Origin: an uncultured Clostridia bacterium
GTDB lineage: Bacteria; Bacillota; Clostridia; Oscillospirales; Ruminococcaceae
Assembly: GCA_945829235.1 (NCBI GenBank)
Contig: CALZUA010000020.1
Coordinates: 1-56,945, forward strand
DNA: 56,945 bases
Direction: 5' to 3'
The notes below the pieces were generated by a model, which did not search any database, had not been told where the DNA came from, and saw nothing but the letters and a program-made list of their open reading frames with translations. Below, piece by piece: positions 4,354 through 38,904 of this stretch. The position numbers were made by a program, and so were the translations under genes. Numbering within the stretch: position 1 is the first letter of the stretch; each line of letters starts with the position of its first letter.

Positions 4354-5358
4354 GTGGCGATTTGCGAGGGAAAAACCTTTCGTTACAGCAACGCGTCGAT
4401 AATTTCATACGGGAGCGTTGTTGGGAAGGTCGAGAGTGACGGACCTTTCGGGGACGAATTTGATGAGATAATCAGCGACAACAAAGGCGGCGCAGATACT
4501 TGGGAGCAAGCAGAGGCGCTGTTTCAACAAAAGGCGCTGAAGCACGCGATGGAAAAAGCTGGACTTGTGCCGGAGAAGATGGACTTGATTTTCGCGGGCG
4601 ATTTGCTCAATCAGTGTACCGGCTCGTCCTACGGCCTGAAGGATTTCTATGTGCCGTTTCTGGGAATTTACGGCGCTTGTTCAACCTTTGCCGAGGGGTT
4701 GCTTTTGGCGGGAGCTATGGTCAACGCGGGCTATGTGGACAACGCGGCGGCGGTTTCTTCATCACACTTTTCATCGGCGGAACGACAGTTTCGGTTTCCG
4801 TTGAACTATGGCGGTGTCCGTACACCGACAGCGCAGTGGACGGCAACGGCTTCGGGAGCGGCGATTGTTGCGGCAAATCAGAAGCCTCCGTTCATCAAAG
4901 CGGCAACGGTTGGCAAAATCCAGGATATGGGAATTTCTGACCTCAACAACATGGGCGCGGCAATGGCTGGCGCGGCTTATGACACAATTTCGCGGCATTT
5001 GAAGCACATGGGTTCACATCCCGAGGATTATGACGCGATAATCACGGGCGATTTGGGAGAAGTTGGAAGCAATATGTTGTACGAGCTGTTTCGGCGCGAT
5101 GGAGTTGCCCTCGAACAGCATCACAAGGACTGCGGCTTGCTGATTTACGACCGCGAGAAGCAGGACGTTCACGCCGGCGGAAGCGGGTGCGGCTGTTCAG
5201 CATCGATGATGTGCGGGCATTTCCTGAAACACGTCGAAAACGGTGATTTAAAGCGGATTTTGTACGTTGCAACAGGCGCGCTGATGTCACCGACAATGGT
5301 TCAGCAGGGCGGCAATATACCGGGTATCGCGCACGCGGTTGAGATTGTGAATAGATGA
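4354..5358 (+). CDS. spoVAD: Stage V sporulation protein AD
   Basis: SpoVAD is the peripheral, dipicolinate-binding subunit of the SpoVA complex, with a thiolase-like fold. The 334 residues match the usual length of about 338. Visible family marks are YGACSTFAEGL with the conserved cysteine, FRFPLNYGGVRTPTAQWTATASGA, the ITGDLGEVG turn, and HAGGSGCGCSA near the C-terminus. The start is GTG 4354 behind AGGGGG. Bases coding its last residues (GIAHAVEI) reappear, decayed, several times in the gap downstream. Confidence 0.95.
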   Translation: MAICEGKTFRYSNASIISYGSVVGKVESDGPFGDEFDEIISDNKGGADTWEQAEALFQQKALKHAMEKAGLVPEKMDLIFAGDLLNQCTGSSYGLKDFYVPFLGIYGACSTFAEGLLLAGAMVNAGYVDNAAAVSSSHFSSAERQFRFPLNYGGVRTPTAQWTATASGAAIVAANQKPPFIKAATVGKIQDMGISDLNNMGAAMAGAAYDTISRHLKHMGSHPEDYDAIITGDLGEVGSNMLYELFRRDGVALEQHHKDCGLLIYDREKQDVHAGGSGCGCSASMMCGHFLKHVENGDLKRILYVATGALMSPTMVQQGGNIPGIAHAVEIVNR

Positions 5359-5740
5359 AATTTAGCGAAAACGGCGGTGTGAAGTGTTTTTTGTTGAAAC
5401 GGTTGCCCGACAAGGTAAAAGCACGTTATCGAATGGTTAAGATAACGCACGGCTGAAAACGGGCGGAAACGGCGTTGCAAAGCGGATTTTCGTTGCAAAT
5501 AATGTTCAACAAGCGTCAAAAACTCGTTATCGCGCGGTTAAATAACGCACGGCGCAAATCAAGCGGAAACGGTGTTGTAAAGCGGGATTTGCGCGTTGCA
5601 GGTCGCTAATTTATCTGGTATTGCGAACGCTGTTGAGATAACGCGCGGCTGAAAACGAGCGAAAATAGCCCGAGTCTTGCGCAAGCGGTTGAGATAACGA
5701 ATTGTTGAAATTGCACAAAAACAAGCTATGGAATTGTGAC
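5310..5740 (+). repeat. Decayed tandem repeat containing copies of the spoVAD 3' end
   Basis: The gap between spoVAD and spoVAE holds at least four imperfect copies of one unit. Its consensus runs from GGTTGAGATAACGCACGG through GCTGAAAACG-GCGGAAACGG to CGTTGCAAAGCGG. Copies begin near 5421, 5521, 5612 and 5671. The copy at about 5604-5640 matches the last codons of spoVAD (5315-5350) at most positions and would still read GIANAVEI. The unit therefore probably grew from the 3' end of spoVAD by tandem duplication and decay. Confidence 0.6.
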
Positions 5741-17041: not shown

Positions 17042-17488
17042 ATGTCGAATAAAATCAGAGAGCGGCAAAACGCGGAAATTCTGCAAGCGGTTTACCGCAA
17101 TTCGCAGATGGCTTATGAAGCGTCGTCGGACGTTTTGAAGCATTGCAAGAACAATATGCTGTTTCGGGAGATAAACCGCGAGAAGGAGCGTTACAAAAAC
17201 ATTGCCGAGCAAGCGAAAAACGAGCTTGTGAAGCGGAACGAGGTTGCCGAGGAGGTTACGCCGCTCGGGAAGATAATGTCGAAGATGGGGATTGCGATGA
17301 AGACGGCGGCAAATCAGAGCGGGCATAATATCGCGAAAATTATGGTGCGGGGGACTACAATGGGGATTATCGATATGCAACACGCCGTTAACCGTTCCCA
17401 CAACGCCGACCCGAGGATAAAGGAGAGTGCCGAGCGGCTTTTGCAACGCGAGCAGGAGTATTGCGAGAGCTTGAAGAAGTATTTATGA
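17042..17488 (+). CDS. Small helical protein of unknown function
   Basis: The 148-residue protein starts at ATG 17042 behind GAGG. It is almost entirely helical and charged, with no signal peptide or membrane segment. The pattern (RQNAEILQAVYRNSQMAYEA, then a second helix with many Glu/Lys, a middle segment MGIAMKTAANQSGHNIAKIMVRGTTMG, and a last helix ending in QREQEYCESLKKYL) suggests a four-helix bundle of the DUF2383/ferritin-like kind, without obvious di-iron ligands. I do not recognise a function. It stands alone after a terminator and is followed by the multi-hairpin element. Confidence 0.75.
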   Translation: MSNKIRERQNAEILQAVYRNSQMAYEASSDVLKHCKNNMLFREINREKERYKNIAEQAKNELVKRNEVAEEVTPLGKIMSKMGIAMKTAANQSGHNIAKIMVRGTTMGIIDMQHAVNRSHNADPRIKESAERLLQREQEYCESLKKYL

Positions 17489-17600
17489 GGACAAGACCGT
17501 TGGCTGAGCACATTCCGTGTGATATAAAAGCGGGCAGGGGTAAATCGGCGCATAGCCCTGTTTCTTGCGAGGAAAATACACCAAAGCTATAATTTTTTGC

Positions 17601-18085
17601 GCGAAGCAAAAAAAGTTTTCGGTCAAGCCTTTTTTAAAAGGCTTGTGGGGCGTGGGGCAAAGCCCCACACTAGAGCGCGGAGCGCGACCACTCGCGGCGA
17701 AGCCGCGCCACTCGGCACGAAGTGCCACCACCGGAGCGAAGCGACAAAATCAAAAAAGAACGCTTTTGCCTTCTTCTAATCAGCAAACCGACTTATCCTC
17801 TAGTTCGCGACCATTGCCAATTTTTTTTGCGAACGAAAAAAAATTCGCAAATCACATTAAACAAACTCATCTTAACAGGCGGGTGCAGTCACGCCGAACA
17901 AACCCGAGATTATCTCTTTCAACGGGGCGTGACTGCACCCGCGCATTTTCGCCGGTTCGATGCCGGCGAAAATGCAAACACCTCTCACAAATTTTGTTCC
18001 AACCAACAGACTTCGCATCGTGAAAGCGATTTTTCGGGTTCGATGCCCGAAAAATCGCAAAAACTCTCCACAAAGCAGGTCCCAA
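17601..18085 (+). repeat. Multi-hairpin dispersed element, copy 1
   Basis: A gene-free stretch of about 485 bases that aligns over most of its length with 38871-38435 on the opposite strand. In order it shows GCGAAGC-A-rich text, hairpin 1 (17625-17644), a mini-hairpin array (17652-17745), an A/T hairpin (17819-17845), a long 17-bp stem (17879-17895 with 17926-17942), hairpin 17943-17975 and hairpin 18026-18058. The last two have perfect 13-bp stems and the same TTCGATG loop. Flanking text TTCGCGACCATTGCCAA and CTTAACAGGCGGGTGCAG is conserved between copies. Confidence 0.8.
17652..17745 (+). repeat. Array of mini-hairpins with GAA-type loops
   Basis: Consecutive short palindromes with different stems but a common three-base loop: GTGGGGC-AAA-GCCCCAC, GCGC-GGA-GCGC, CGCGGC-GAA-GCCGCG, GGCAC-GAA-GTGCC, and a weaker GC-GAA-GC. 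They are spaced by CCACT-like linkers at about 20-base intervals. Stem sequences differ while pairing is kept. Confidence 0.75.
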
Positions 18086-18096
18086 GTGACACAAAC

Positions 18097-18126
18097 CAAA
18101 CCCCGCTCTTTTGACAAGCGGGGTTT
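18097..18126 (-). terminator. Terminator of the greA-lysS block (minus strand)
   Basis: AAACCCCGCT pairs with AGCGGGGTTT just downstream of the stop at 18130; a T-rich stretch follows on the minus strand. Confidence 0.7.
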
Positions 18127-38434: not shown

Positions 38435-38871
38435 AGTGCGCGTGGGACTTTGGCTTCTGCGAAGCCACGGCGATTTTTCGGGCATCGAACCCGAAAAATC
38501 GCTTTCGTGATGCAAAGTCTGTTGGTTTAGCTGAATTTGCGAGAGGCGTTTGCATTTTCGCCGGCATCGAACCGCCGAAAATGCGCGGGTGCAGTCACGC
38601 CCCGTTATTAGAGAAAATCTCGGGCTTGTTTGGCGTGACTGCACCCGCCTGTTAAGATAAGTTTGCAAAATGGGATTTGCGATTTTTTTGACGGACGTCA
38701 AAAAAATTGGCAATGGTCGCGAAACTGATGTACAAGTTTCCTCGTTGATTTATACAAAGCGAAATTGTCCTTTTATTGATTTGACGCTTCGCTCCAGTGC
38801 CTCCGGCGGCAAGGAACCTTTTTCTGAAGAAAAAGGTTCCTTGACCTCCAAAAAGACTTTTTTCGCTTCGC
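38435..38871 (-). repeat. Multi-hairpin dispersed element, copy 2
   Basis: Minus-strand counterpart of 17601-18085, between spoIIE (upstream) and glgB. Reading down the minus strand it shows GCGAAGCG-A-rich text, hairpin 1 (38842-38811, a different stem from copy 1), a single GGAGCGAAGCG unit, the A/T hairpin (38707-38682, sequence changed but pairing kept), the 17-bp stem (GCGGGTGCAGTCACGCC and partner, about 38650-38588), and two 13-bp hairpins with TTCGATG loops, the last at 38500-38468. One stem has a single mismatch. A further GGCTTC-GCA-GAAGCC mini-hairpin follows at 38466-38452. Confidence 0.8.
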
Positions 38872-38904
38872 GGTGCTCGATTACAGCTTTGCGAGATGAG
38901 CACG

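What the first reader, a model, noticed from the sequence alone, without database searches (positions are those of the whole stretch)
17601..18085. Dispersed multi-hairpin element, present twice in inverted orientation (also 38435-38871)
About 450-480 bases align between two gene-free regions 20 kb apart. Each copy lies downstream of a gene and in the same direction (unknown small protein; spoIIE). The element has at least six hairpins in fixed order with long perfect stems. It could be a family of structured RNAs in 3' regions or a miniature mobile element. It matches no RNA class or insertion sequence I recognise.
Basis: seen in the sequence. Interest (0 to 1): 0.72.

Follow-up and report, generated by a model that had tools for sequence, protein, structure and literature searches.

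The report
Modular hairpin repeats after genes
An uncultured gut bacterium carries dozens of copies of a building-block repeat, each a row of hairpins mostly placed just after a gene and pointing the same way; many sites are kept between species while their blocks change, like the known BOX and REP repeats of other bacteria but as a new and unusually orderly family.

Summary
The two window copies belong to a dispersed family: 62 DNA matches in the own genome, 40 exact 5'-end signatures. Module order is constant in the copies read: 5' end, A hairpin (two types), mini-hairpins, middle hairpin, 1-3 paired "D-T" hairpins, 3' hairpin. At 35 of 40 sites the element follows a gene in the gene's own direction, median 34 nt after the called stop. 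Stems covary (13 of 31 pairs change on both sides); irregular pairs are G-T rather than A-C on the gene-sense strand, which points moderately to RNA. In two related species 16 of 26 and 9 of 10 elements sit beside the same genes, yet orthologous copies are only weakly closer than random ones and A types differ in 5 of 16 and 3 of 9: inherited sites, partly exchanged insides. Window copy 1 is absent in 7 of 7 relatives holding the gene pair. No Rfam, Y1-transposase, phage or plasmid match. Best reading: a BOX/REP-like modular interspersed repeat, co-transcribed as 3' UTR. New family, known kind; function unproven.

The parts
17485..17592 (+). 35-aa ORF directly upstream of copy 1; its stop codon (17590-17592) lies 6 nt before the element
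   Evidence: read from the sequence; similar ORF in L160 and L162-L167 (by eye); no Pfam family
17599..18058 (+). copy 1 of the modular hairpin element, from the E5 5' end to the last T hairpin
   Evidence: absent from the orthologous site in 7 of 7 relatives with the gene pair
17624..17645 (+). copy 1, A1 hairpin
17652..17668 (+). copy 1, G-rich hairpin GTGGGGCAAAGCCCCAC
17693..17745 (+). copy 1, three mini-hairpins with GAA triloops (17693-17707, 17714-17726, 17733-17745)
17814..17850 (+). copy 1, C hairpin (A/T-rich, one C-C mismatch)
17879..17942 (+). copy 1, D hairpin (17-bp stem)
17943..17975 (+). copy 1, T hairpin directly after D (apex TTCGATG)
18026..18058 (+). copy 1, second T hairpin (apex TTCGATG)
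18098..18126 (.). terminator-like palindrome beside the convergent gene; a counterpart stands at the empty site of the relative G031
38452..38878 (-). copy 2 of the element, 26 nt after the spoIIE stop
   Evidence: an element with partly other modules lies at the same place in G031
38864..38878 (-). copy 2, E5 5' end GAGCACCGCGAAGCG
38810..38843 (-). copy 2, A2 hairpin
38682..38707 (-). copy 2, C hairpin
38585..38648 (-). copy 2, D hairpin
38552..38584 (-). copy 2, T hairpin directly after D (stem with one G-G mismatch)
38470..38502 (-). copy 2, second T hairpin
38452..38466 (-). copy 2, E3 hairpin GGCTTCGCAGAAGCC at the 3' end

Best explanation
A non-coding, modular, interspersed repeat element of the BOX/BIME kind. 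Copies stand just behind gene ends in the gene's direction, so that they become part of the 3' untranslated RNA and fold into a row of hairpins. Shown: the family, the module order, placement and direction, covariation, shared sites, and three presence/absence differences between species. Inferred: (a) the copies are transcribed from the upstream gene; (b) the fold acts in RNA, most likely as an inert or stabilising mRNA 3' end, as proposed for REPs, rather than as a specific regulator; (c) sites are inherited and their inside is in part overwritten by recombination or gene conversion from other copies; (d) new copies arise by an unidentified process, perhaps a transposase acting in trans that was not recognised here or has been lost, or copying tied to the palindromes.
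For: Family and order: 62 matches; order E5-A-M-(C, U or both)-(D-T)1-3-E3 in the G000 copies read, many lacking modules. Placement: 35 of 40 G000 signature sites, 22 of 26 in G031 and 9 of the 10 examined of 12 in G018 follow a gene in the same direction; 29 of 35 G000 distances are at most 61 nt. Between codirectional genes, where direction is most informative, 14 agree and 3 oppose in G000 (p 0.013), 8 and 2 in G031 (p 0.11). Fold: 98.3% of 889 cells paired against 33.6-49.4% when slid; 13 of 31 pairs changed on both sides (29 of the 45 units). RNA sense: apex pair T-G 10, T-A 9, C-G 13, C-A 0, with 3 of 35 hairpins set aside as unrelated (Fisher 0.004); 12 G-T to 3 A-C mismatches in 111 stems (p 0.035). 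Shared sites: 16 of 26 (G031) and 9 of 10 (G018); for G031 0.5-1 would be expected by chance if 1000-2200 genes are assumed. Exchange: some non-orthologous copy is closer than the ortholog in 15 of 16 (G031) and 4 of 9 (G018) pairs; A type differs in 5 of 16 and 3 of 9, while several pairs keep the same leader and distance from the stop. Presence/absence: copy 1, L003 and L011.
Against: No transcript data. The looser wobble count that took in flanks and opposing elements was 17 G-T to 13 A-C, not significant; the rules were made after seeing it. Orthologous copies are still closer than the median non-ortholog in 10 of 16 (G031) and 7 of 9 (G018) pairs, so exchange is partial. Five of 40 G000 sites are not downstream of a same-direction gene, and of the shared sites 12 of 16 and 8 of 9 have a same-direction upstream gene in both species. 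In 5 of 35 same-direction G000 sites a strict scan finds an intrinsic terminator between stop and element, and there are more by eye, so those copies may not be transcribed with the gene. Covariation comes as whole cassettes with few one-sided intermediates, and the number of pair types is not above shuffles (487 of 500 at least as high); palindrome correction in DNA could also give this. Among 21 loci of other species with related arrays, 8 have the upstream gene pointing away. No mobilising enzyme was found.
Confidence: 0.62

Rival explanations
1. Purely selfish or neutral palindromic DNA. Copies are tolerated at gene ends because promoters and reading frames exclude them; perfect stems arise by template switching (palindrome correction) and homogenisation by recombination, without any RNA role.
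For: Many copies in only 3 of 43 genus genomes, one match in a fourth; presence/absence at sites; cassette-like changes; arrays beside gene starts in sister species; pneumococcal BOX, RUP and SPRITE repeats were judged parasitic (PMC3049150, abstract and sections 5 and 6 read).
Against: Direction bias between codirectional genes (14 to 3), closeness to the stop and the sense-strand wobble bias are not expected of DNA palindromes as such, although transcription-linked mutation could bias wobble.
Confidence: 0.28
2. A MITE with terminal inverted repeats moved by a DNA transposase; the single copies are halves of inverted composites.
For: Convergent E5-A pairs within 700 bp at three G000 loci (C24, C6, C14) and inverted A1 hairpins 488 and 478 nt apart in L190 and L193 of G400, another genus of the family; fused-end remnants in L171 and L196, by eye.
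Against: 34 of 40 G000 signatures are not in such a pair (positions); the three G000 pairs lie between convergent genes, each half next to its own gene; no clear target duplication at the three empty sites read by eye. No autonomous copy was noticed, but none was searched for systematically.
Confidence: 0.06
3. A host-selected 3' UTR regulatory RNA family with a protein or small-molecule ligand reading the conserved T-hairpin apex (UUCGAUG-like).
For: Apex conserved while stems change; many sites inherited.
Against: Restricted to few species; modules are absent or replaced at orthologous genes; the two neighbouring genes identified are of unlike function (SpoIIE; Cpn60 chaperonin), though no enrichment test was made.
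Confidence: 0.04

Closest known systems
BOX elements of Streptococcus pneumoniae (boxA-boxB(n)-boxC)
   Same: Modules in fixed order with a repeatable middle module, many copies per genome (125 BOX there, 62 matches here), strong RNA-like folds, frequent between convergent genes (here 19 of 38 two-sided sites, against 6 of 47 gene pairs in the window), many inherited insertions (PMC3049150, sections 5 and 6 read).
   Different: Here there are alternative modules (A1/A2, C/U), a leaning to one direction a few dozen nt after stops, and orthologous copies that often differ in modules. Sequence similarity to BOX was not tested.
REP/BIME palindromic repeats (GTAG- and CGTC-tagged)
   Same: Mostly downstream of genes, thought to be transcribed, G-T pairs in stems taken as support for this (PMC3733652, abstract and passages found by term); evolution by gene conversion was raised for REPs in a 1988 review of which only the title was seen (reference lists).
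   Different: No GTAG/CGTC tag within 6 nt of the 35 T-like and 45 D hairpins checked; no Y1/RAYT transposase found in the genome; a multi-hairpin unit of up to about 650 nt, not a 20-40-bp palindrome.
RUP and SPRITE repeats of the pneumococcus
   Same: Short non-autonomous intergenic repeats; SPRITE lies close behind coding sequences (PMC3049150, sections 5 and 6 read).
   Different: SPRITE is a single long terminator-like hairpin; this is a row of different hairpins.

Membership tests
BOX elements | modules in fixed order, middle module in variable number | tested here: met
   D-T unit 1-3 times between the middle module and E3 in G000 copies that have it
BOX elements | boxA/boxB/boxC sequence | not tested
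   BOX sequences were not fetched or compared
BOX elements | terminal inverted repeats and target-site duplication | tested here: inconclusive
   three empty sites read by eye show no clear duplication
REP/BIME | GTAG or CGTC tag beside the palindrome | tested here: not met
   0 of 35 T-like and 0 of 45 D hairpins; the 35 include three judged unrelated
REP/BIME | TnpA-REP / RAYT (Y1 transposase) in the genome | tested here: not met
   PF01797: none in G000 (100% complete), G031 (99%) or G018 (73%); present in 19 of 61 genomes searched
REP/BIME | preferential location downstream of genes | tested here: met
   35 of 40 signature sites
MITE | inverted ends flanked by target duplications, with a parent transposon | tested here: inconclusive
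   inverted pairs only at some loci; no duplication evident at three sites; no parent searched for beyond Y1 and RT
Known structured RNA (Rfam 15) | match to a covariance model | tested here: not met
   0 at gathering score in the whole window; four hits at E 0.64-0.95 around copy 1, far below their gathering scores, none for copy 2
Group II intron or other reverse-transcriptase element | RT gene in each carrier genome | tested here: not met
   PF00078: 2 in G000, 0 in G031 and in the incomplete G018
Intrinsic terminator | G+C-rich stem followed by a T run in sense | tested here: inconclusive
   a scan finds a sense terminator between E5 and the next gene at 10 of 40 G000 and 9 of 26 G031 sites, not sorted into inside or outside the element; by eye no standard module ends in a T run

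The most novel reading that the evidence does not exclude
A genome-wide set of 3' UTR slots that stay at the same genes across species while their RNA hairpin cassettes are exchanged between slots by gene conversion: a dispersed, recombining library of mRNA 3' ends that sets transcript stability.
Probability: 0.16. Interest if true: 0.75.

Novelty: new variant of a known kind. Interest (0 to 1): 0.54.

Why it matters
Whether small bacterial repeats such as REP and BOX are parasites or parts of mRNAs is an old question. Here one genome gives dozens of copies with known direction, inherited sites, empty sites and changed cassettes in close relatives, so that inheritance of a site can be told apart from inheritance of its sequence. 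The sense-strand wobble test gives a simple sequence-only handle on whether such repeats are selected as RNA.

Tried and rejected
Rfam: nothing above chance. Y1/RAYT and reverse transcriptase: not shared by the carrier genomes. Phages and plasmids by distant blastn of copy 1 and IMG/VR by one exact T-hairpin pattern: no match. A protein scan of viral contigs with the 148-aa upstream gene: no relative. The first pattern for the 5' end was mis-written and missed even the known copies; it was replaced by the pattern checked and used. It does not catch copy 1 of the window, so 40 is a lower bound. The idea, which I recalled, that the A1 hairpin is widespread in the phylum was not borne out: 10 of 398 genomes have a match, G000 and G400 (same family) have many, G237 four, the rest one or two. 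Triplex DNA motifs (PMC4666352, abstract and section 16 read) resemble the G-rich hairpin by eye but were not tested. Three wobble counts were made: 8 G-T to 1 A-C on the G000 cluster extents, 17 to 13 with flanks, 12 to 3 with element limits by rule. Two clusters (C14:79094, C17:11398) counted were dropped; the placement counts in this report come from the signature set, which keeps the first of them.

Papers: PMC3049150 (abstract, sections 5 and 6), PMC4666352 (abstract, section 16), PMC3733652 and PMC2267715 (passages found by term); other papers were seen only in search listings. Library searches; nothing on this family was seen in the listings, which is not proof of absence.

Full report
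What is there. The two gene-free stretches do hold the same element in opposite orientation, and each folds far better than its shuffles. A search of the genome that holds the window (G000, 3.23 Mb in 52 contigs) with copy 1 gives 62 matches. Reading the copies shows a mosaic with constant order: E5 (GAGCACCGCGAAGCG or GCGCGAAGCG), then an A hairpin of one of two types, then mini-hairpins with GAA triloops, then an A/T-rich hairpin (C), a module holding a T hairpin (U), or in L003 both, then one to three units in which a long D hairpin is followed without gap by a T hairpin, sometimes a further T hairpin, and E3 (GGCTTCGCAGAAGCC) with a variable tail. Many copies lack modules. The T hairpin keeps most of its seven-base apex (TTCGATG and near variants) while its stem changes.

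Who has it. The exact 5' signature GCGAAGCGN{1,5}AAAGTYTTY occurs 40 times in G000, 26 in G031, 12 in G018, once in G065 and not in the other 39 of 43 genus genomes, nor in the 24 genomes of other genera searched; the reversed-pattern control gave 0 in these four and at most 1 elsewhere. It misses copy 1 itself, so the counts are lower bounds. Two carriers can be named from equal contig lengths in public records: G018 fits an uncultured Clostridia MAG (CAMEQX) and G031 an Oscillospiraceae MAG from water deer colon (JAGASH, RGIG8728). Related but different arrays (A hairpin, G-rich hairpin, mini-hairpins, GCTAAAGG and CAAGAG hairpins) occur in other species of the genus and in G400 of another genus of the family. 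Copy 1 has no distant-blastn match in phages or plasmids, and an exact T-hairpin pattern none in viral contigs.

Where it sits. With genes called by a hexamer model trained on the window, 35 of 40 G000 sites, 22 of 26 G031 sites and 9 of the 10 G018 sites examined (of 12) have an upstream gene in the same direction; the G000 median distance from the stop to the signature is 34 nt and 29 of 35 are within 61 nt. The caller can miss small genes: for copy 1 it missed a 35-aa ORF (17485-17592) with counterparts in relatives; the element starts just after its stop. Between convergent genes direction is not informative (19 of the 38 G000 sites with both neighbours called); between codirectional genes the G000 split is 14 same to 3 opposite (p 0.013) and in G031 8 to 2 (p 0.11). 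An intrinsic terminator stands between stop and element in 5 of 35 G000 and 5 of 22 G031 cases by a strict scan; the chaperonin gene (Cpn60 family) and L011 are further cases by eye.

Fold and strand. Of 45 D-T units found in G000, G018 and G031-type loci, the 29 with the GCGGGT/C-type D hairpin (27 from G000, 2 from G018) were aligned; the other 16, with unlike D hairpins, were left out. The stated 31-pair structure is formed in 98.3% of 889 cells, against 33.6-49.4% when partners are slid; 13 pairs change on both sides and the covariation score exceeds all 500 shuffles, while the number of further pair types does not (487 of 500 at least as high). Changes come as whole cassettes with few one-sided intermediates, so DNA-level palindrome correction is a real alternative. 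Strand: the apex closing pair is T-G 10, T-A 9, C-G 13, C-A 0; three of the 35 distinct hairpins found have other closings and were set aside as unrelated, two because no module lies near and one by eye (Fisher p 0.004). In 111 stems of 76 elements cut to element limits by rule, irregular positions were 12 G-T, 3 A-C and 20 other (p 0.035). The earlier counts were 8 to 1 and, with flanks, 17 to 13. These sequences are related and the rules were refined on the way, so the p values are guides. Together they point, moderately, to pairing in RNA of the gene-sense strand.

Inheritance and exchange. Of 26 G031 elements 15 lie next to the ortholog of a gene with an element in G000 (80-98% protein identity in blastp among element neighbours) and one more by both flanking genes (L005/L147); of 10 G018 elements 9 do. 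For G031 0.5-1 shared site would be expected by chance (gene number assumed). The upstream gene points toward the element in both species in 12 of 16 and 8 of 9 of these. Two further shared sites with a variant E5 are the chaperonin gene (L008/L177) and L029/L183. Several pairs keep the same distance and leader between stop and E5 (Spearman 0.55, p 0.03 for 16 pairs; 0.58, p 0.10 for 9), so these are most simply old, inherited insertions. Over the first 130 nt the ortholog is above the median non-orthologous copy of the other genome in 10 of 16 (G031) and 7 of 9 (G018) pairs, but some non-ortholog is closer in 15 of 16 and 4 of 9; the best of the G000 paralogs is closer in 15 of 16 and 9 of 9, over 230 nt in 13 of 16 and 8 of 9, a comparison that favours paralogs because the best of 39 is taken; the A type differs in 5 of 16 and 3 of 9 pairs. 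At spoIIE and the chaperonin gene the G031 elements have partly or wholly other inner modules. One pair (L030/L148) behaves like ordinary orthologs (90%). The simplest account is inherited sites whose insides are in part overwritten from other copies.

Gain. Copy 1 is missing between the same two genes in all 7 relatives that have the pair (11 genomes searched, 8 with the convergent gene), so it is most simply a gain. Copies L003 and L011 are missing at the same places of G031; gain or loss is open there. By eye, copy 1 and L003 lie between the stop and a terminator-like palindrome, L011 just behind the gene's own terminator-like hairpin. No clear target duplication was seen. In L171 (G031) and L196 (G400) two element ends are fused into a palindrome that looks like a bidirectional terminator.

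What it is. The organisation matches BOX elements in kind (modular order, repeatable middle, strong fold, many inherited sites; PMC3049150, sections 5 and 6) and REP/BIMEs in placement (downstream of genes, wobble pairs; PMC3733652, passages), but it fails the REP tags and the Y1 transposase test. It is therefore filed as a new family of a known kind, with three unusual traits: a preferred direction close behind stops, alternative modules, and sites more stable than their contents. I hold that the element is transcribed as 3' UTR and mostly acts as an inert or protective mRNA end; that step, and how new copies arise, are inference.

Noticed in passing
window 17485-17592 (+): 35-aa ORF overlapping the stop of the 148-aa gene, with counterparts in seven relatives (L160, L162-L167), missed by length-based calling; no Pfam family.
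   Followed up: partly
window 5224-5721: Loose repeats about 98 nt apart (families D2, D3, D6), mostly in the gap between two genes; a different repeat kind.
   Followed up: no
L171 11090-11215 (G031) and L196 around 1552 (G400): Two opposing element 5' ends fused into one palindrome, terminator-like in both directions: perhaps a deletion remnant put to use.
   Followed up: partly
L190, L193, L195 (G400): In another genus of the family the A1 hairpin pattern counts 37 forward and 37 reverse matches, and L190 and L193 have inverted A1 hairpins 488 and 478 nt apart.
   Followed up: partly
L109 around 567 and 6596: A Prevotellaceae MAG (RUG483) has T-like hairpins with apex CTCGATG or TTCGATG, one beside a GTAGGGGCGGG-type repeat; chance or convergence not settled.
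   Followed up: no
L117, L054, L056 and others: Sister species carry arrays of quite different hairpins (CAAGAG apex, GCCAACAGGC hairpins) in the same general layout, some beside gene starts.
   Followed up: partly
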